14,491 bases of DNA from Desulfobacteraceae bacterium (GTDB lineage: Bacteria; Desulfobacterota; Desulfobacteria; Desulfobacterales; UBA11574): assembly GCA_029857875.1 (NCBI GenBank), contig JAOUGB010000014.1, positions 1 through 14,491 of the forward strand. Direction: 5' to 3'. Positions 6,385-14,491 of the stretch are shown here, one piece after another (position 1 is the first letter of the stretch; the number at the start of each line of letters is the position of its first letter). The position numbers and the translations under genes were made by a program. Below the pieces are notes generated by a model, which saw only the letters and a program-made list of their open reading frames with translations, had not been told where the DNA came from and did not search any database.

Positions 6385-7521
6385 CTATGAGACCTTTTTT
6401 AAAACCCTTATTATCTCGGCACCAAACGCCTGCTTCTGCCAGTTTTTCATTTCCTTGACTGTCTCAAGGGATTTACTGTCACCAGGATTCTTTACGGCAA
6501 TGGCCGTGATCAGCGCATTATTGCAAAGTATCCCGGGATCGATCCCAAGAGTGCTTGCTTTCGAAGCTCTCCAGAATTTAAGGGCTTTTATTTTTGCCGA
6601 CGCCCCGTTGGGCAACACAGGGGGTTTTTGGGAAGGAAAAACCGGAAGTTCGCTTTCAGGTATTTTCAAGGGCTTGGCCACCACCTTTATCAAATCATTG
6701 CCGTACATGGAGATCTGCCTGTTACTCAAAGCTTTTATGTTTTTTAAACGGCGCAACGTTACGGGTCTTGCCGTTGTAATCTTCATTATCGACTCATTCC
6801 CAATAATTTTGAAAAATGGTTTGTCCTTTTTTTCAGCAACACGTTTTCTGAACTGCAGCAAGGCTTCGAGCACGGCAAGACTTCTTGATTTGAGCCGACC
6901 CGCGCCTTTGAATTTCATAAATAATGGCGCCTCATTGGATAACACAGGCCTCACCTTGCTTAAATCTTCGCACTCTTCAAGCACCCATGTCATCCGGTCT
7001 ATTTTTTTAAGCCTATGAATCAGCATCCTGGCAAGGGGAAGAAGATAGATCACATCTTTTGAAGCATACGCCATCATTTCCTTTGGCAACGGTCTTTTAG
7101 ACCAGTCTTTTTTCTGGTATTTTTTATCGACATTGACGTTAAAAAACATCTTCAACACCGCCTGCAATCCGGTCTCTTTGATCCCTAAAAATCGGCAAGC
7201 AAGTTCCGTATCAAAAAGATTGTTTATTCTAATTTTGAAATCCCGGTAAAGACTGCGGACATCATAGTCCGCTCCATGAAAAATCTTTTTGATATCGGGG
7301 TTGGAAAAAATCGGATTAAGTGGGGCCAGGTTTTTTATCGCCAATGGATCAACCACAACAGAGATTTTTTCAGTGGCGATTTGAATCAAACAAACCTTTT
7401 CTTTATAATGATACATGGAATCTGCTTCCAGATCAACGGCCACGGCCTTTTCCTTTTCAAGGGATCTTACAATTTCTTCTAGACCAGCTGCCGTATCTAT
7501 TACCTGAGATTCGATTTCCAT
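6385..7521 (-). CDS. rnd: Ribonuclease D
   Basis: A 378-residue DEDDy 3'-5' exoribonuclease, almost the length of E. coli RNase D (375). Exo I is D30-L-E32, Exo II is HGADYD with Asp87 the probable metal ligand, and Exo III is Y152-A-S-K-D156; these bind two divalent metals. An HRDC domain follows at about residues 205-285. It would trim 3' ends of tRNA precursors and other small structured RNAs in the cytoplasm. The ATG at 7521 is preceded by AAGGGAAA on the minus strand. It diverges from thrS across 143 bases, and the stop lies 16 bases from the repeat element at 6098-6368. Pairing of a tRNA-processing and a tRNA-charging gene is suggestive but may be chance. Confidence 0.93.
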   Translation of the reverse strand: MEIESQVIDTAAGLEEIVRSLEKEKAVAVDLEADSMYHYKEKVCLIQIATEKISVVVDPLAIKNLAPLNPIFSNPDIKKIFHGADYDVRSLYRDFKIRINNLFDTELACRFLGIKETGLQAVLKMFFNVNVDKKYQKKDWSKRPLPKEMMAYASKDVIYLLPLARMLIHRLKKIDRMTWVLEECEDLSKVRPVLSNEAPLFMKFKGAGRLKSRSLAVLEALLQFRKRVAEKKDKPFFKIIGNESIMKITTARPVTLRRLKNIKALSNRQISMYGNDLIKVVAKPLKIPESELPVFPSQKPPVLPNGASAKIKALKFWRASKASTLGIDPGILCNNALITAIAVKNPGDSKSLETVKEMKNWQKQAFGAEIIRVLKKVS

Positions 7522-7531
7522 TCAATTTTCC

Positions 7532-7545
7532 CTTGACCCGTCAAG
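7532..7545. promoter_or_regulatory. Palindrome in the rnd/thrS divergent spacer
   Basis: CTTGAC-CC-GTCAAG is a perfect 6-bp inverted repeat with a 2-base centre, lying 11 bases upstream of the rnd start codon. It overlaps a possible thrS -35 box (TTGACC, 7533-7538). It could be an operator or merely a small hairpin in the rnd leader. Confidence 0.35.
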
Positions 7546-7561
7546 TTATTTCACCTAATCT
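7533..7561 (+). promoter_or_regulatory. Candidate sigma70-type promoter for thrS
   Basis: TTGACC (7533-7538) and TAATCT (7556-7561) are separated by 17 bases, facing thrS with a predicted start of transcription around 7568. The -10 match is only moderate and the spacer is AT-rich enough to offer alternatives, such as a second TAATCT about 25 bases further on. This is inferred from sequence only. Confidence 0.35.
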
Positions 7562-7657
7562 TACTTTTTTTAATTTACAAAATAATCTTTTCGTTGTTCT
7601 GAAATTTGTACTTTTTACGAAAAAAACTCGAATTTCCAAGTTATCCAGATTAGGTGA
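7551..7657. repeat. 11-bp inverted repeat spanning rnd/thrS spacer
   Basis: TCACCTAATCT (7551-7561) is the exact reverse complement of AGATTAGGTGA (7647-7657), 85 bases apart. The right copy contains the AGGTGA that serves as the thrS ribosome site. The left copy overlaps the candidate -10 box. On the minus strand the left copy also reads AGATTAGGTGA toward rnd, so both divergent genes have the same motif upstream. CAAGTTAT also occurs next to both copies. Confidence 0.6.
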
Positions 7658-7664
7658 TCATATT

Positions 7665-9581
7665 ATGGTGAACATAACATTTCCTGACGGTAATATAAAG
7701 AGCTTTGAAAACAACCCCACGGGTTTGGATGTGGCAAAAAGCATTTCCGATGGTTTTGCACGAAACTGCGTGGCCATGGAATTGAACTCGGAGCTTGTCG
7801 ATTTAAGCACAACAATCACCCATGATTCCAAAGTCAGACTGGTCACAACCAAAGATCCCGAAGCGCTGGAAGTTCTTCGGCACAGCGCAGCCCATGTCAT
7901 GGCCCAGGCGGTTATTCATCTCTACAAAGATGCCAAACTGACCATCGGGCCATCGGTTGAAGACGGATTTTATTACGACATCGATATGGAACCGGTCTCT
8001 AAAGAGGATTTTGAAAAAATCGAAGCTGAAATTCAAAAAGCCATCAAGGCCAAGATACCCTTTGAACGCCGCATGGTTTCAAAATCCGAAGCTCTGGAAT
8101 TTTACAAAGACGAGCCGTATAAACTCGAAATGATCTCGGAACTGGAGGAAGGCACAATTTCGTTTTACAAACACGGCGATTTTACGGATTTGTGTCGTGG
8201 CCCGCATCTTCCCCATACCGGATTTATTAAAGCCATAAAGCTGATGAAAGTCTCCGGTGCTTACTGGCGTGCCGATCAAACAAAGGCACAGCTACAAAGA
8301 ATTTACGGTACGGCATTTTTTTCCAAAAAAGAGCTTGATGAATACGTATATTTTATTGAAGAAGCCAAAAAAAGAAACCACCGCAAAATCGGTATTGCTC
8401 TCGATCTTTTCAGTTTTCACGATGAAGCGCCTGGAATGCCTTTTTTTCATCCAAAGGGAATCAGTATTTGGAACTGTCTTTTCGATTACTGGCGGGAAGA
8501 ACACAGAATAGCAGGTTATGTGGAAACAAAAACCCCGATCATGCTCAATCGCAGCCTTTGGGAAAAAAGCGGTCACTGGGACAATTACCGCGAAAATATG
8601 TACACCTCCCTTGTTGATGAAGAAGAATACGCCATAAAACCGATGAACTGCCCGGGAGGGATGCTCATATACGGGATGAAACCCCACTCATATAAAGACC
8701 TGCCGATTCGGGCCGCAGAAATCGGACTGGTGCACAGACACGAACTTAGCGGTGTGCTGTCCGGCCTGTTCAGGGTCAGGGCCTTTCATCAGGATGATGC
8801 GCATATTTTTATGAGACCGGATCAGATCGAAAAAGAAATATTAGGCGTGCTCAGGCTGGTGAAACGGATTTACCGCACATTTGGGCTCGGATTTCATTTA
8901 GAGCTTTCCACAAGGCCTGAAAAATCTATCGGAACAGATCAACAATGGGAATTAACAACTAAAGGGCTCAAGGCAGCACTGGATACGTACGGCCAAGATT
9001 ATAAGATAAATGAAGGAGACGGTGCATTTTACGGGCCCAAGATAGATGTACACATCAAAGATGCCCTTGGCAGAACCTGGCAGTGCGGGACCATTCAGCT
9101 CGATATGTCGCTGCCTGAACGGTTTGACCTTTCATACATTGACAGCAACAATGAAAAACAACGCCCATTGATGATCCATCGGGTCATTTACGGCTCCATC
9201 GAACGATTTTTCGGAATTCTCATCGAACACTTTGCCGGCAAGTTTCCGCTGTGGATGGCACCGTTCCAGGTCATTCTCTTGCCCATCAACGACGATCTCG
9301 TGTCCCACGCAAACGATGTGAGAATCATGCTTGAAAAGGCCGGGCTTCGCACGGAAGTGGACAGCAGAACCGAGAGCCTGAACAAAAAAGTTCGAGATGC
9401 CCAAATCAACAACATCCCGTTGATTCTGACCATCGGGGATAAAGAAAAAAAATCCAAAACCCTTTCGGTGAGAACCCTGGACGGCAATGTCAGGTTCGGT
9501 GTTTCACATGAAGAATTTTTGGAAAAGGTTTTATCCCACGTCCGGGAGAGAAAACTGGGTCTTAATATCTTTTTGGCTTAG
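7665..9581 (+). CDS. thrS: Threonyl-tRNA synthetase
   Basis: A 638-residue class II synthetase, the usual full length. The order is a TGS domain (1-60), the editing domain with H73xxxH77 and CRGPHLPHTG around 178-186, the catalytic core, and an anticodon-binding domain from about 535. Zinc ligands are Cys329 (MNCPGG), His380 (QDDAHIF) and His505 (PLMIHR). Motif 2 includes the RVRAFHQDD segment and motif 3 the IHRVIYGSIERFFG segment. It charges tRNA-Thr and hydrolyses Ser-tRNA-Thr. I chose the ATG at 7665 because AGGTGA precedes it and the TGS domain starts there; the open frame upstream is rnd antisense. The TAG stop lies inside CTTAG at the left end of MITE copy 2. No infC-rpmI-rplT follows, unlike the enterobacterial operon. 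Confidence 0.97.
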   Translation: MVNITFPDGNIKSFENNPTGLDVAKSISDGFARNCVAMELNSELVDLSTTITHDSKVRLVTTKDPEALEVLRHSAAHVMAQAVIHLYKDAKLTIGPSVEDGFYYDIDMEPVSKEDFEKIEAEIQKAIKAKIPFERRMVSKSEALEFYKDEPYKLEMISELEEGTISFYKHGDFTDLCRGPHLPHTGFIKAIKLMKVSGAYWRADQTKAQLQRIYGTAFFSKKELDEYVYFIEEAKKRNHRKIGIALDLFSFHDEAPGMPFFHPKGISIWNCLFDYWREEHRIAGYVETKTPIMLNRSLWEKSGHWDNYRENMYTSLVDEEEYAIKPMNCPGGMLIYGMKPHSYKDLPIRAAEIGLVHRHELSGVLSGLFRVRAFHQDDAHIFMRPDQIEKEILGVLRLVKRIYRTFGLGFHLELSTRPEKSIGTDQQWELTTKGLKAALDTYGQDYKINEGDGAFYGPKIDVHIKDALGRTWQCGTIQLDMSLPERFDLSYIDSNNEKQRPLMIHRVIYGSIERFFGILIEHFAGKFPLWMAPFQVILLPINDDLVSHANDVRIMLEKAGLRTEVDSRTESLNKKVRDAQINNIPLILTIGDKEKKSKTLSVRTLDGNVRFGVSHEEFLEKVLSHVRERKLGLNIFLA

Positions 9582-10347: not shown

Positions 10348-10749
10348 TTGGAAAAATTGAACAAATTTTTTGCTTACTGGTTCCCGATTCTTCTTTACTG
10401 TCTGTTGATCTTTATCCAGTCTTCCCACCCGTCGCCTGAGATTGGACCCGACTGGCCGTTCAAGGACAAGGTGCTTCATTTTACCGCCTATGCCCTGCTG
10501 GGCGCCCTATTTCTAAGGGCCTTTTATACCACCCGGATCAAACATCATCTAAAACTCATTTTTGCGCTCAGCGTGCTTTTTTCAGCGCTTTACGGCATCA
10601 GCGATGAAATTCACCAGTCTTTTGTCCCCTATAGAACCGCCGATGTCATGGATGCCCTGGCGGACATACTCGGCAGTATTTTGGGGGTCTATATCTTCTA
10701 TAAAATAAAGATTGGAAAAAACGCTAAAATAACAAAACCCGGTTTTTGA
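10348..10749 (+). CDS. VanZ-family membrane protein
   Basis: A 133-residue integral membrane protein. Hydrophobic segments lie at about 9-24, 44-59, 69-84 and 104-119. The family signature is present: DKVLHFTAYALLGALF (40-55) and SDEIHQSFVPYRTADVMDAL (85-104), followed by a D-I-L-G-S-I-L-G helix. VanZ confers teicoplanin resistance in some enterococci, but most family members have unknown roles and this one is best called VanZ-like. The start is a TTG at 10348, chosen because the frame is open upstream without an ATG or GTG and because this start precedes the first membrane segment; the ribosome site is poor, so the start is uncertain. The stop codon lies in the loop of the terminator that follows. 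Confidence 0.85.
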   Translation: MEKLNKFFAYWFPILLYCLLIFIQSSHPSPEIGPDWPFKDKVLHFTAYALLGALFLRAFYTTRIKHHLKLIFALSVLFSALYGISDEIHQSFVPYRTADVMDALADILGSILGVYIFYKIKIGKNAKITKPGF

Positions 10750-10865: not shown

Positions 10866-11792
10866 TTAATCCACAACCGGTCTGGGCAGAACTTTGGCCC
10901 GTTCAGCGATTTCGGGAACCATGTGTTCCCATTCAATGGCCATCAGGTGGACGCCGTGAACGCCTTTCATTTCCTTGAACTCTTCGATCTGTTCGCAGGC
11001 GAATTTAATGCCCTCATCCGCCACCTTTCCCTTTTCTGCACCCTGAAGGCGCTTGATGACTTCATCCGGCACGTCCATTCCGGGGACCTTGTTCTTCATG
11101 TACTTGGCCATACCCACACTCTTCATGGGCGTCACACCGGCCAACATATAGACTTTTTCCGTAATCCCCATGTCATTGGCCTGTTTGATAAATTCCCGGA
11201 ACTTTTCCATGTTGTAGATACACTGGGTCTGGATGAAATCGCACCCGGCTGCCACCTTCTTTGCCAGGCGGTGTACCCGCCATTCGAACGGATCTGCAAA
11301 GGGGTTGGATGCCGCACCGATAAACATTTTAGGTATTCCATGCAAATCGGCGCCGCTTTGAAATTTTCCTTCATCACGCATGGTTTTGACCATATTGATC
11401 AACTGGATGGAGTCGATATCGAATACACCCTTGGCCAGGGGATGGTCACCAAACATTTGATGATCACCGGAAAGGCACAGCATATTCTTTATACCGTGGG
11501 CATAGGCCCCCAAAACATCGGCCTGCATGGCCAACCGGTTTCGATCCCGGCACACCATCTGGAAATTGGGTTCCAGGCCTTCCTGAAGTAAGAGAAGGCT
11601 CGCAGCCCAGCTGGACATCCGTACCATAGCGGTCTGATTGTCGGTAATGTTCACCGAATCCACATTCCCTTTCAAATGTTGAGCCTTTTCTCTTACTTCT
11701 TCGACATCACAGCCTCTGGGTGGCCCAAGTTCCCCAGTAAATGCAAAATGACCTGCCTTTAAAACTTTCTCCAAATTGCTTCCTGATTTCAT
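10866..11792 (-). CDS. metF: Methylenetetrahydrofolate reductase, catalytic subunit
   Basis: A 308-residue TIM-barrel flavoprotein of the MetF family. The N-terminal FTGELGPPRG carries the conserved active-site Glu. Other MTHFR landmarks are SVNITDNQTAMVRMS near residue 45, LCLSGDHQ around 105, the D-P-F-E-W-R segment, and AAGCDFIQTQCIYN near 180. It would interconvert 5,10-methylene-THF and 5-methyl-THF in the methyl branch of the Wood-Ljungdahl pathway. AGAGGAAG precedes the ATG. It is the last gene of the minus-strand cluster after metV (98-base gap). Cluster context suggests that electrons come through the MetV and Hdr subunits and not directly from NAD(P)H. The direction (acetate oxidation or CO2 fixation) cannot be told. 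Confidence 0.95.
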   Translation of the reverse strand: MKSGSNLEKVLKAGHFAFTGELGPPRGCDVEEVREKAQHLKGNVDSVNITDNQTAMVRMSSWAASLLLLQEGLEPNFQMVCRDRNRLAMQADVLGAYAHGIKNMLCLSGDHQMFGDHPLAKGVFDIDSIQLINMVKTMRDEGKFQSGADLHGIPKMFIGAASNPFADPFEWRVHRLAKKVAAGCDFIQTQCIYNMEKFREFIKQANDMGITEKVYMLAGVTPMKSVGMAKYMKNKVPGMDVPDEVIKRLQGAEKGKVADEGIKFACEQIEEFKEMKGVHGVHLMAIEWEHMVPEIAERAKVLPRPVVD

Positions 11793-11890
11793 TTCGGCTT
11801 CCTCTGCTCTAATTGCAAAATCATTATTCTCATAATCCGATGCGCCGGATTTACTCCAATATACGCGCTTTCATCCGTATAAATGGGATG

Positions 11891-12571
11891 TTATGATTCT
11901 TCAGCTTTCTCGGGTTTTTTGTAACCGGGCTGAATCAACGTCCTTGGAATCTGGTCATTCCATTCTACCGGGGGTGTATATGCTTTAATATTATCAAGAC
12001 GGCCCTGTCTTTCCAGACGTTCATAGATCCTGAACCAGGCACAGGGTTGATCCGTGTTTATCTCGCAGCTTCCCCTATTGGTGCCGCCGCAGGGACCGTT
12101 ATAAAGCCCCTTTGCACACATGGTGACCGGACAGATGGCAGCGGTCATTCCGAGCACGCATTTGCCGCAGGAACGACAACGCTCTTCATACCAGCCCACC
12201 CCCTGGTTGGCGGACATGCCGCATGTATCCACACCCGGAAAAACCGGCTTGTCCGGAAATCTTTCCGCCAGAAACTGAATCCCCACGCCGCATGCCATGG
12301 AAAGAATCGCATCATAGCCTCCGACGATATTATCCAGCTCCTCGAGATATTCATGGTCACATTGTCTTTCTATAGTTTTTGCACCAAGTTCTACAGGGTT
12401 GTTGTCCAGTTTTCTGGCCATATCGATCTCGGCATTCAGAACGACAACCTCTTTTTCACCCCCTGCAAGGCAAACCGCCACACAGGTACCGCAGCCCACA
12501 TTAAGGACCTTTTTATAGTCCTTGATCATTTCCTTTATTTCTTCAAAGGGTTTTCTTTTGGCAACTATCAT
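11891..12571 (-). CDS. metV: MetV, Fe-S/zinc partner of MetF
   Basis: A 226-residue cysteine-rich protein of the MetV group (methylenetetrahydrofolate reductase C-terminal family). Cysteines cluster at 27, 30 and 34 (GCGTCVAVC), 71, 94 (SMACGVG), 117 (DTCGMS), 132/135/138 (CRSCGKC), 147, 152, 161, 169 and 177. They are enough for a [4Fe-4S] cluster pair and a zinc site. In Moorella, MetV bridges MetF to HdrABC-MvhD, and the same role is likely here. GAGGAGGG sits a few bases upstream of the ATG. A 94-base gap with a hairpin-forming repeat separates it from the Hdr fusion gene. There is no in-frame stop in this gene. Confidence 0.9.
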   Translation of the reverse strand: MIVAKRKPFEEIKEMIKDYKKVLNVGCGTCVAVCLAGGEKEVVVLNAEIDMARKLDNNPVELGAKTIERQCDHEYLEELDNIVGGYDAILSMACGVGIQFLAERFPDKPVFPGVDTCGMSANQGVGWYEERCRSCGKCVLGMTAAICPVTMCAKGLYNGPCGGTNRGSCEINTDQPCAWFRIYERLERQGRLDNIKAYTPPVEWNDQIPRTLIQPGYKKPEKAEES

Positions 12572-12665
12572 TTTCCCTCCTCAACAGTCATTTGTCGCCA
12601 GCCGTTTATCATTTATCATCCATCAGGCATCCATTCTCAAATGACCCATGACTGATGGCCAATGA
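12572..12665. repeat. Hairpin-forming intergenic repeat inside the cluster
   Basis: The gap between the Hdr fusion and metV carries CATCAGGCAT (12621-12630) and ATGACTGATG (12648-12657), pairing at 9 of 10 positions, with outer partial pairing between TCATT...GCCA and TGGC...AATGA. The TTTATCATTTATCATC phrase resembles a dispersed repeat type seen in Desulfobacterota. It could cause partial termination or mRNA processing inside the operon. Confidence 0.5.
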
Positions 12666-13985
12666 TTACATTGCCGATTCTGGGTGAAAGGGCAAAACTT
12701 CTTTAAGATCATCTCCCAGGTATTCACGCTCGTTGGGTCCAAGAATTCCCAGAGAAAGACAGATCAACGTCCACAAATGAACGGTTTGCCATGCGTGATT
12801 GTTGATGTCACTCAGATCATGGACCTGGGCATGGCAATTGTGGCATGGTGTAATACAGTAATCCGCCTTTGTCGCCAGAATCTGGTTTGCTTTGAGTTTG
12901 CCGTAGCTTCGACGCGCTTCAGGATATCCTGACTGGAGAAATCCTCCTCCGCCGCCACAGCAGTAATTGTTGGACTTGTTGGGATGCATTTCAATAAAAT
13001 TTTCTTCACCCACAACCGCTTTCACCGTATACCGAAGATCTTCGGCCACCGGATCCCCAAAGGTCTTTCGCACCAACTGGCAGGGATCCTGAACCGTGAA
13101 TTTGATTTTCAGATCCTTGTTCCAATCGGAATTGACCTTCAGTTTGCCTTCACGAATCCACTGGGCATAATACTGAATGATGCTCTTTACTTCAAACTTG
13201 TGCTCGATCTTGAATTTTTCCAGTCCGACCCGGACTGCAAATAGCTCGTGCCCTCACTCGGTATTGAGCCAGACCTTGCACTTGAGATCATCTACGGCTT
13301 TGGCCTTGACCCTTACAATATGCTCCCAGTTTTTATTGTCGGCCAAAAACAGGCAGTAATTTTCCGCCGCCCATCCTTTGGTTCCGTATGTCCAGTCCGC
13401 ACCCACCAGATGAAGAATCTTCCAGAGCGGAACCATCTCATCCGGCTCGGTCACCGGTTCTCTGGAATTCTGATTCAAGTAGAATTCAGCCCCTTCTCTG
13501 TTGACATCCGCCTTCATGTCCTTGAATTCAGGCTGAGACTCCTGATATTCTTCCAGCACGTCTTCTACCACGAATTGAAAATCTTCCTCAGATGCCCCCA
13601 TGGCAGAGCAGGTATCGCTTCTCAATGCCATGTCACATGAGCCGAGGATTCCCTTGGGTCGCTCTTCCCGGGGCCAGCTTGCCCTGGCGTTGAAGACCAG
13701 TTGGGGGATGTTGATTTTCATGGGACAGACATAAATACATCGCGTACACATGGTGCACATCCATACCCAGGGTGTACTGGTTACCTCTTCGTCCATACCC
13801 AGGGCTGCCATGCGCAGAAACTTTCTGGGGTCCATATTTTCCAGACCCGTAGCCGGGCATCCGGACGAACAAGCGCCGCAGGTCAGGCAAAGATTGAGAT
13901 TTCCTCCTTCAGGAAGTAACTCTTTTACCTTGTCCAGAAAAATGCTTTTCTTTTTGCCGCCTATTTTGATTGCTTCTTCAGCCAT
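12666..13985 (-). CDS. HdrC/HdrB-like fusion with selenocysteine (Sec244)
   Basis: A 439-residue reading frame if the in-frame TGA at 13254-13256 is read as Sec. The N-terminal part is HdrC-like, with two [4Fe-4S] motifs: C33xxC36xxC39xxxC43P and C77xxC80xxC83xxxC87P. The C-terminal part has two CCG-type domains as in HdrB/HdrD/DsrK. In the first, the usual ECGH is E-U-G-H with Sec at 244. The second is complete: DPC302, YCC343GGGGG, C377 and P-C381-HNC384. No other stop occurs between the two halves, and the part after the TGA has no start or ribosome site of its own. GGAGGAG precedes the ATG, 16 bases after mvhD. It should pass electrons from HdrA/MvhD to MetFV, perhaps through a non-cubane cluster. 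The first CCG domain otherwise lacks several standard cysteines. Confidence 0.9.
13221..13237 (-). promoter_or_regulatory. Putative bacterial SECIS for Hdr fusion Sec244
   Basis: Immediately downstream of the UGA at 13254-13256, on the coding strand, CAGUCC-GGGUC-GGACUG forms a perfect 6-bp stem with a 5-base loop that begins with G. The loop starts 23 bases after the UGA. Distance, small loop and leading G fit the described bacterial SECIS model, in which the hairpin lies within the coding region and recruits SelB. Confidence 0.75.
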
Positions 13986-14001
13986 AATATCTCCTCCGTT
14001 T

Positions 14002-14424
14002 TTAAACCTTTGCCGAAGCCTTTAATGGATTGGGTCCCAGAGACCGTATATTGTCGGTCATCTCCTTTGCATAGGCTGCAAAAGTGGGTCCTTCACCTGA
14101 AGATAGGTTATACATTCTCACCCTGTCGCCTTCAAGACCGATCTCTTCCAGCAACATACGGACATGTTCCACCCGTTCACGAGCCCTGAAATTACCTTCG
14201 TTATAGTGGCAATTTCCTTCCAGACAGCCCACCACATAAACCCCGTCGGCCCCTTTCTGAAATGCCCTCAGAAGATGTATGACATCAACCTTTCCGGTAC
14301 AGGGAAGTCTAATGATTTTAATGCTTGCAGGATAATCGAGTCGCATGGAACCTGCCAGGTCCGCGGCGGAATATCCTCAGTAATCACAACAAAATGCTAA
14401 AATGGTCGGTTCGAAATCAGCCAT
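14002..14424 (-). CDS. mvhD: MvhD-like iron-sulfur protein with selenocysteine (Sec16)
   Basis: A 140-residue MvhD-family protein if the TGA at 14377-14379 is read as Sec. The N-terminus reads FEPTILAFCCDYUGYSAADL, matching the family's N-terminal C-x-x-C-[ST]-Y-x-x-A-D pattern with Cys13 and Sec16. Later conserved cysteines are 42 (PCTGKVD), 67 and 72 (GCLEGNCHYNEGN). In methanogens MvhD links a hydrogenase to HdrA through a [2Fe-2S] cluster; in MetFV-HdrABC-MvhD it is part of the electron entry route. The true start at 14424 has GGAGGGG upstream and overlaps the hdrA stop by one base (TGATG). Calling from the internal ATG at 14346 would lose 26 residues, including the Sec and its partner cysteine. 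Methanococcal VhuD is a known Sec-containing relative. Confidence 0.9.
14347..14362 (-). promoter_or_regulatory. Putative bacterial SECIS for MvhD Sec16
   Basis: Downstream of the UGA at 14377-14379, GGACCU pairs with AGGUUCC through six base pairs with one bulged U on the 3' side, leaving a GGC apical loop. The loop begins 21 bases after the UGA. After one mismatch the stem can extend by G-U and C-G pairs. The bulged U and G-first loop resemble the E. coli fdhF element in style, although the bulge is on the other arm. Confidence 0.65.
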
Positions 14425-14491
14425 CACATCCCCTCCGCCTCAAGTAAGGCATCAATTTTGCACATTATTTGATCATCATCATAATAACTTA
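14424..14491 (-). CDS. hdrA: HdrA C-terminal end (partial)
   Basis: Only the last 21 codons lie in the window, reading SYYDDDQIMCKIDALLEAEGM followed by TGA. The acidic D-D-D-Q segment followed by an I-D-A-L-L helix resembles the C-terminal tails of HdrA proteins. The stop overlaps the mvhD start by one base, consistent with the common hdrA-mvhD order. The call rests on this short tail and on context, so the rest of the gene, including any FAD domain, must be checked outside the window. Confidence 0.6.
   Translation of the reverse strand, partial: SYYDDDQIMCKIDALLEAEGM

What the first reader, a model, noticed from the sequence alone, without database searches (positions are those of the whole stretch)
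10866..14491. A double-selenoprotein, Hdr-linked methylene-THF reductase complex
The order hdrA-mvhD-hdr(CB)-metV-metF combines every kind of subunit of the MetFV-HdrABC-MvhD complex described in Moorella, but with HdrC and HdrB fused and with selenocysteine in both MvhD and the Hdr fusion. Two adjacent electron-transfer subunits both carrying Sec suggests the redox path between the HdrA flavin and MetFV is deliberately selenium-tuned. This could let the organism bifurcate (CO2 reduction) or confurcate (acetate oxidation) electrons at the methylene-THF step, the energetically unusual step of the pathway. I do not know of a biochemically characterised Sec version of this complex.
Basis: partly seen in the sequence, partly recalled or inferred. 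Interest (0 to 1): 0.85.

Follow-up and report, generated by a model that had tools for sequence, protein, structure and literature searches.

The report
Selenium-rich Hdr-linked methylene-THF reductase operon
A sulfate-reducing bacterium's genome carries an operon for a folate-reducing enzyme of the carbon-fixation and acetate-oxidation pathway whose electron-transfer subunits contain the rare amino acid selenocysteine, a feature shared by relatives.

Summary
On the minus strand the window carries the last 21 codons of hdrA, then mvhD, an hdrC/hdrB-type fusion (hdrCB), metV and metF. mvhD and hdrCB each have one in-frame UGA followed by a SECIS-like hairpin; homologues with UGA keep this hairpin and those with a Cys codon mostly do not. 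Among 60 fetched metV loci of the order, 27 show hdrA-mvhD-hdrCB-metV with mvhD and hdrCB readable; 26 of 27 have Sec in both. Two corrections. HdrCB resembles DsrK/TmcB/HmcF/EtfD: it keeps one noncubane-cluster site, and its Sec lies in a degenerate first CCG domain, in the ECGH motif. And HdrCB-Sec is not confined to metVF clusters. HdrA of relatives keeps the Glu/Lys pair proposed for bifurcating flavins, so bifurcation or confurcation is plausible but unproven. The selenoprotein families and the Hdr-type reductase were each known; their conserved combination and the Sec site in HdrCB are the new part.

The parts
14424..14489 (-). 3' end of hdrA (last 21 codons and stop); the rest lies beyond the contig end
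   Evidence: Reading frame matches HdrA C-termini in homologous loci; the stop overlaps the mvhD start by one base; L048 and L060 have TAA there, so this TGA is taken as a stop
14002..14424 (-). mvhD (FlpD family), selenoprotein, 140 aa with start Met
   Evidence: Pfam FlpD 2.5e-49; one in-frame UGA; 9sfi_K has X at the aligned position
14377..14379 (-). Sec codon UGA of mvhD
   Evidence: Conserved as UGA in relatives
14347..14362 (-). SECIS-like hairpin of mvhD (GGACCU GGC AGGUUCC)
   Evidence: All pairs form in 13 of 14 distinct Sec sequences and 4 of 46 Cys sequences; third codon positions nearly frozen in the Sec set; single-sequence z-score only -1.05
12666..13985 (-). hdrCB fusion (Fe-S oxidoreductase of the GlpC/'UGH' selenoprotein kind), 439 aa
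13254..13256 (-). Sec codon UGA of hdrCB (residue 244, motif TEUGHEL)
   Evidence: UGA in 57 of the 80 fetched homologues, Cys in 23
13221..13237 (-). SECIS-like hairpin of hdrCB (CAGUCCG GGU CGGACUG)
   Evidence: All 7 pairs form in 53 of 58 distinct Sec sequences and 0 of 23 Cys sequences; more than one pair type at three of seven positions; z-score -2.0 for the window copy
11891..12571 (-). metV
   Evidence: Pfam PF12225 1.7e-33
10866..11792 (-). metF
   Evidence: Pfam MTHFR 1.5e-39

Best explanation
[quoted passage not shown] HdrA by homology). Shown: genes, order, conservation, Sec codons, SECIS-like hairpins, cluster-binding motifs. Inferred: electrons exchanged at the MetF flavin pass through MetV [4Fe-4S] clusters and the MvhD [2Fe-2S] cluster to the HdrA flavin carrying the Glu/Lys pair, which couples the about -200 mV methylene/methyl-THF step to a lower- and a higher-potential carrier (ferredoxin and NAD(P)H likely; some relatives have a GltD-like NAD(P)H domain in HdrA). 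HdrCB is a second redox port with two cubane clusters and one noncubane cluster, with Sec244 beside the latter. In acetate oxidation the complex would confurcate; in CO2 fixation it would bifurcate.
For: Family assignments. Of 60 metV loci fetched from 60 of 116 genomes of the order, 27 have hdrA-mvhD-hdrCB-metV with mvhD and hdrCB readable; 26 of 27 have Sec in both. HdrA there has Sec in 24, Cys in 1 (L180), and is not covered in 2. HdrA domain 1 keeps Glu in 24 of 24 and Lys in 25 of 25 readable sequences out of 26, while domain 2 lacks the Glu in 25 of 25 (residues mapped from PMC9430772 passages through). GltD-like NAD(P)-binding insert in the two examples scanned. MetVF-HdrCBA-MvhD pull-downs in Sporomusa ovata (PMC9430772, passages). 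tRNA-Sec in 5 of 7 relatives with the cluster; SelB in the MAG.
Against: No biochemistry. HdrCB is absent between mvhD and metV in 6 of the 60 loci and in some genomes is encoded elsewhere, so it may not be an obligate subunit. tRNA-Sec was not found in the MAG itself, which is 87% complete. [quoted passage not shown] in Thermacetogenium a bifurcating reaction was not observed and a quinone link was proposed (PMC6895022, passages). Window HdrA is seen only as 21 codons.
Confidence: 0.6

Rival explanations
1. HdrCB is the main electron outlet: methyl-THF oxidation electrons leave through HdrA-MvhD-HdrCB to a protein disulfide such as DsrC or to a membrane/quinone partner, without true bifurcation at this step.
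For: HdrCB's best NCBIfam relatives are the DsrK, TmcB and HmcF subunits of respiratory complexes; its best fold match is EtfD, which wires ETF to menaquinone (PMC13083937 passages); CCG proteins of this type are predicted to meet DsrC (PMC10553843 passages); menaquinone or a quinone link is proposed for related enzymes (PMC13040438, PMC6895022 passages); in 8 of 18 loci of one architecture hdrCB-Sec was read after a HdrA-like/HdrA-MvhD pair resembling QmoAB (the Qmo likeness is my reading, no family model was met).
Against: HdrA of relatives keeps the Glu/Lys pair proposed for bifurcating flavins; I noticed no membrane subunit or DsrC gene beside the clusters, but did not test this systematically.
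Confidence: 0.27
2. MetVF is a stand-alone ferredoxin-dependent reductase, and the adjacent Hdr/MvhD genes make a separate complex that merely shares the operon.
For: MetVF of Clostridium ljungdahlii is reported as reduced-ferredoxin-dependent (PMC8515935, title and start of abstract in the listings); HdrCB-Sec occurs away from metVF.
Against: Conserved synteny in 27 readable loci of the order survey; pull-downs in Sporomusa (PMC9430772 passages).
Confidence: 0.11
3. The UGA codons are stops: the genes are split, decayed, or wrongly sequenced.
For: The MAG lacks a recognisable tRNA-Sec, and 116 of the 120 listed database relatives of MvhD are pieces of 109-124 aa.
Against: UGA at the same codon in many genomes, hairpins tied to UGA, SelB in the MAG, tRNA-Sec in 5 of 7 relatives, known Sec families.
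Confidence: 0.02

Closest known systems
Type IV (Hdr-type) MetVF-HdrCBA-MvhD methylene-THF reductase of Moorella thermoacetica / Sporomusa ovata
   Same: Same kinds of subunits, gene adjacency; HdrA of relatives has two flavin domains of which one keeps Glu/Lys, as described for S. ovata (PMC9430772 passages).
   Different: HdrC and HdrB are one chain with a degenerate first CCG domain; Sec in MvhD, HdrCB and (in relatives) HdrA. Whether Moorella's own met-cluster HdrA/MvhD carry Sec I could not check: PMC1794560 lists Sec HdrA and FrhD for that species without saying which locus.
glpC-hdrA-frhD-frhG-frhA operon of Syntrophobacter fumaroxidans and Desulfotalea psychrophila (PMC1794560, passages)
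   Same: The same three selenoprotein families, GlpC/Fe-S oxidoreductase, HdrA and FrhD/MvhD, side by side.
   Different: Linked there to a hydrogenase, here to MetVF.
hdrABC-mvhD-metVF with fused hdrCB in Chloroflexi DscP3 (PMC5736913, passages)
   Same: HdrCB fusion in a MetVF cluster.
   Different: No Sec is mentioned for those subunits in the passages I saw; different phylum.
metF-HdrABC in Seep-SRB1g (PMC10553843, passages)
   Same: Hdr genes next to metF in syntrophic sulfate reducers, same proposed coupling.
   Different: Sec not mentioned in the passages I saw.
Desulfobacterium autotrophicum HRM2 HdrA/HdrL/HdrD/MvhD selenoproteins (PMC2702500, passages)
   Same: Sec in HdrA1, HdrA2, HdrL1, HdrL3, HdrD4 and four MvhD.
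   Different: No link of these to metF is made in the passages I saw.
Mycobacterium smegmatis EtfD (PDB 9ojn, PMC13083937 passages)
   Same: Best fold match over most of HdrCB; C-x-H motif before the noncubane-cluster domain.
   Different: EtfD is membrane-bound and has four ligands for a linear [3Fe-4S] cluster; HdrCB appears to keep two of the four positions.

Membership tests
Type IV (Hdr-linked) methylene-THF reductase | metV and metF adjacent to hdrA, mvhD and an HdrC/HdrB unit | tested here: met
   Window order; hdrA from a 21-codon tail plus homologous loci
Type IV (Hdr-linked) methylene-THF reductase | HdrA flavin site with the Glu/Lys pair proposed for bifurcation | tested here: inconclusive
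   Present in relatives (24 of 24 Glu, 25 of 25 Lys readable; also L180); the window's own HdrA is not on the contig
Type IV (Hdr-linked) methylene-THF reductase | Physical complex and coupled NADH-linked activity | not testable with these tools
   Needs biochemistry
Bacterial selenoprotein genes | In-frame UGA with a SECIS hairpin just downstream, apical G about 16-37 nt after the UGA (distance rule recalled) | tested here: met
   apical GG about 21-24 nt after the UGA; single-sequence folds only moderately better than shuffles or not better
Bacterial selenoprotein genes | Sec machinery in the genome | tested here: inconclusive
   SelB found over cut-off; tRNA-Sec not found in the MAG but in 5 of 7 relatives; selA and selD not tested
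HdrB (two noncubane [4Fe-4S] clusters) | Two complete CCG cysteine sets | tested here: not met
   Only the second is complete: C302, C342, C343, C381, C384 invariant in 50 aligned sequences; the first keeps C211 and Cys/Sec244
Fe-S oxidoreductase-like (GlpC, 'UGH') selenoproteins | UGH motif in a CCG-domain Fe-S protein | tested here: met
   TEUGHEL in HdrCB; family listed with motif UGH in PMC13188914 (passages)
EtfD-type linear [3Fe-4S] site | Four Cys ligands (503, 538, 581, 584 in EtfD) | tested here: inconclusive
   By motif and offset only two positions seem kept, C211 and U244; no residue-level structural alignment was available

The most novel reading that the evidence does not exclude
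In HdrCB one of HdrB's two noncubane clusters has been replaced by a redox-active Cys211-Sec244 pair facing the remaining noncubane cluster, so that the Hdr-linked methylene-THF reductase uses a selenol/selenenylsulfide site to exchange electrons with a protein or small-molecule disulfide (DsrC is a candidate), tying the Wood-Ljungdahl methyl branch directly to sulfur respiration.
Probability: 0.2. Interest if true: 0.85.

Novelty: new variant of a known kind. Interest (0 to 1): 0.6.

Why it matters
The electron partner of the methylene-THF reductase step is an open question in acetogens (PMC13040438, PMC9430772, passages) and, to my knowledge, in acetate-oxidising sulfate reducers. An operon with Sec in HdrA, MvhD and HdrCB that is also found in cultured strains (Desulfopila aestuarii, Desulfosediminicola flagellatus), with a Sec site beside a putative noncubane cluster, offers a concrete system to purify and probe spectroscopically. 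It also suggests that automatic annotation hides such subunits: 116 of the 120 listed database relatives of MvhD have the length expected if translation is started after the UGA.

Tried and rejected
UGA as stop or assembly error: rejected. HdrCB as an ordinary HdrB: rejected, only one complete CCG set. HdrCB carrying an EtfD-type linear [3Fe-4S] cluster: unlikely, two of four ligand positions seem kept, but not settled. Sec as a MetF-specific adaptation: rejected, Sec-HdrCB occurs in other contexts. An Rfam scan at E up to 1 found nothing in the window; Rfam may hold no model that fits these hairpins. A plasmid search with HdrCB gave two distant hits, and with MetF 20 records, all below 60% identity. 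A tRNA-Sec search of the MAG returned other tRNAs.

Limits: the AF2 model gives no coordinates, so no distance from Sec244 to the cluster could be measured. The match of U244-G-H246 to EtfD Cys581-x-His583 rests on motif, nearly constant offsets and a global fold match, plus a MAFFT alignment in which the ECGH motif of DsrK, a TmcB-like protein and a Methylovirgula protein falls on it. C211 is not conserved in those three. Gene sampling is uneven because many contigs end close by, and the loci and overlap in part, so the two surveys are not independent.

Rows dropped: alignment A1 used 38 of the 80 fetched loci, the window, L004 and 10 of 120 listed proteins; L103 was dropped for an in-frame stop. 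From I fetched only the first 60 non-window places of the list (59% identity and above, one per genome); the cut is mine. In one search, 7 of 60 loci were truncated or unclassed, 2 showed hdrCB-Sec with no mvhD before the contig end, and 1 (L180) has Cys in MvhD with Sec in HdrCB. L161 and L180 were left out; L180 was read (HdrA with Cys at the Sec site, Glu and Lys present), where the tblastn column had shown V through misalignment; L161 covers only the HdrA tail.
Full report
Setting. The window is a complete 14,491-base contig (C203) of a fragmented MAG (G000: 3.46 Mb, 722 contigs, 87% complete, 6% contamination). Its nearest HdrCB matches in named records are MAGs titled Desulfobacterales or Deltaproteobacteria.

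What is there. On the minus strand lie the last 21 codons of hdrA (14489-14427), mvhD (14424-14002), hdrCB (13985-12666), metV (12571-11891) and metF (11792-10866). Pfam gives FlpD for MvhD, 4Fe-4S dicluster models plus one CCG for HdrCB, PF12225 for MetV and MTHFR for MetF. The hdrA tail matches HdrA C-termini in eight homologous loci with hdrA at this place.

Selenocysteine. Both UGAs are conserved. I took the 53 bases around each UGA and tested hairpins against Cys-codon homologues. HdrCB: all seven pairs form in 53 of 58 distinct Sec sequences and at least six in 58 of 58; 0 of 23 Cys sequences form all or all but one. MvhD: all in 13 of 14 Sec against 4 of 46 Cys; all but one or better in 14 of 14 against 8 of 46. 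HdrA: 15 of 15 against 2 of 19; with one missing pair allowed, 15 of 15 against 7 of 19. Third codon positions in the stems are nearly frozen in the Sec sets of MvhD and HdrA, and mostly so in HdrCB, and vary more in the Cys sets. HdrCB shows more than one pair type at three of seven positions. Against this stand three points: the stems were defined on Sec sequences; mean folding energy is lower in the Cys set for MvhD (-14.4 against -10.7), though not for HdrCB (-9.1 against -12.2) or HdrA (-9.9 against -11.1); and single-sequence folds are only moderately better than shuffles for hdrCB (z -2.0 and -2.7) and hardly or not for mvhD (-1.05 and 0.09). The comparative pairing result and UGA conservation carry the argument. 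The MAG has SelB but no recognised tRNA-Sec; 5 of 7 relatives with the cluster do have it.

How general. A search of 116 genomes of the order (the MAG itself among them) with the window's MetV matched 107. I fetched the best 60 other places, 59% identity and above, one per genome, and scored neighbours with tblastn. Twenty-seven show hdrA-mvhD-hdrCB-metV with mvhD and hdrCB readable: 26 have Sec in both, 1 (L180) has Cys in MvhD and Sec in HdrCB. HdrA has Sec in 24 of these, Cys in L180, and is not covered in 2. Two further loci end just upstream of hdrCB-Sec. Six have mvhD directly before metV without hdrCB (3 Sec, 3 Cys). Eighteen have metV-metF followed by two HdrA-like genes, the second with an MvhD-like end that shows Ser at the Sec position in the 16 where it was reached; hdrCB follows with Sec in 8, is cut before the residue in 2, and was not found in the fetched stretch in 8. 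Seven are truncated or unclassed. An upstream hdrA or hdrL with mvhD-Cys precedes a good part of the first group, and where its N-terminus was read it can carry Sec too (for example L157, L159, L187), giving four selenoproteins in one operon.

A separate scan started from HdrCB gave 80 loci, partly the same contigs: 57 have Sec and 23 Cys at this residue (leaving out the window and L004); metV lies in the fetched stretch in 16 of the 57 Sec loci and 4 of the 23 Cys loci. HdrCB is thus a shared module. The same MAG has a second cluster, mvhD-Sec, metV, metF, a response-regulator-like gene (named by eye), hdrCB-Sec (L004); since the bin shows 6% contamination, it may not be the same organism, but the MAG Ww166 also has both arrangements (L051, L072). 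Named strains with the full cluster are Desulfopila aestuarii DSM 18488 (L269) and Desulfosediminicola flagellatus IMCC35005 (L270).

HdrA. In L028 it has about 1,000 residues and two flavin domains; its Sec (residue 59, DCAMU) aligns with a Cys of solved HdrA. PMC9430772 (passages) names E356 and K409 of Methanothermococcus HdrA as the mark of a bifurcating flavin. I mapped these through the printed 8rvu alignment, where an E and a K with the same spacing of 53 stand (inference). In 26 sequences (L028 plus 25 survey loci) domain 1 has E in 24 of 24 and K in 25 of 25 readable; domain 2 has S, A, G or T in place of E in 25 of 25 and keeps K. L180 also has E and K in domain 1. The two long proteins with an insert that I scanned carry a GltD-like NAD(P)-binding module over the cut-off of NF009410.

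MvhD. The Sec aligns with X in the solved VhuD chain 9sfi_K, which I take to be Sec; if so, Sec at this site already has a structure in a methanogen.

Mechanism. The methylene/methyl-THF couple is near -200 mV (PMC9430772, passages). I consider most likely a soluble complex in which HdrA couples this step to ferredoxin and NAD(P)H, with HdrCB as a further port. Whether HdrCB serves DsrC, a membrane partner or only internal transfer is open.

Prior knowledge (all read as passages). Sec families HdrA, FrhD/MvhD and GlpC, and their joint operon with a hydrogenase, are in PMC1794560 (2006) and reviewed in PMC13188914 (2026). Sec in several Hdr and MvhD proteins of D. autotrophicum is in PMC2702500, Sec HdrA and MvhD of Desulfococcus multivorans in PMC5109826, and Sec Hdr, MvhD-type and Fe-S oxidoreductase proteins of a marine deltaproteobacterium in PMC8318568. 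HdrCB fusions beside metVF are in PMC5736913. metF-HdrABC in Seep-SRB1g is in PMC10553843. PMC6085437 counts 25 MetF homologues from genomes that also encode MetFV, MvhD and HdrABC. In the listings of my ten paper searches and the passages I opened I saw no Sec-containing MetVF-Hdr complex, but the library holds open-licence papers only, and figures and supplements were not seen.

Verdict. A real and widely conserved selenium-rich variant of the Hdr-linked methylene-THF reductase operon. The claimed role of selenium in tuning the path to MetFV is not established.

Noticed in passing
public protein entries P0121-P0240 (query MvhD of L028): 116 of the 120 listed database relatives of this MvhD are 109-124 aa long and cover about 80% of the query, consistent with gene callers starting after the UGA; the selenoprotein is hidden by annotation.
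   Followed up: partly
L109 (contig C3 of the same MAG), 499-963: Another MvhD-like frame has Cys at the first site but an in-frame UGA at the later GCH site (SGUH); solved VhuD 9sfi_K also has X there.
   Followed up: no
L113 (contig C120), 1855-3858: A third metV-metF pair in the MAG follows an MvhD-like protein whose N-terminal Cys/Sec motif is not recognisable.
   Followed up: no
L189, L191, L201, L203, L206, L209, L213, L214: metV-metF followed by a QmoAB-like HdrA pair (MvhD end with Ser at the Sec site) and hdrCB-Sec: an alternative MetVF partner module.
   Followed up: partly
L157 2892-7316; L166 6748-11178: HdrA variants of about 1,475 aa with a GltD-like NAD(P)H domain inserted after the Sec motif, reminiscent of HdrL of D. 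autotrophicum and Moorella HdrA as described in papers.
   Followed up: partly
window 7320-9581 and 10348-10749: A threonyl-tRNA-synthetase-like and a VanZ-like frame (named by eye) near metF recur near the cluster in L028 and L031, so the surroundings are partly syntenic.
   Followed up: no
L088 2728-3990: A second, distant HdrCB paralogue (34% identity) also with UGA at the aligned position lies just upstream of the closer one.
   Followed up: no
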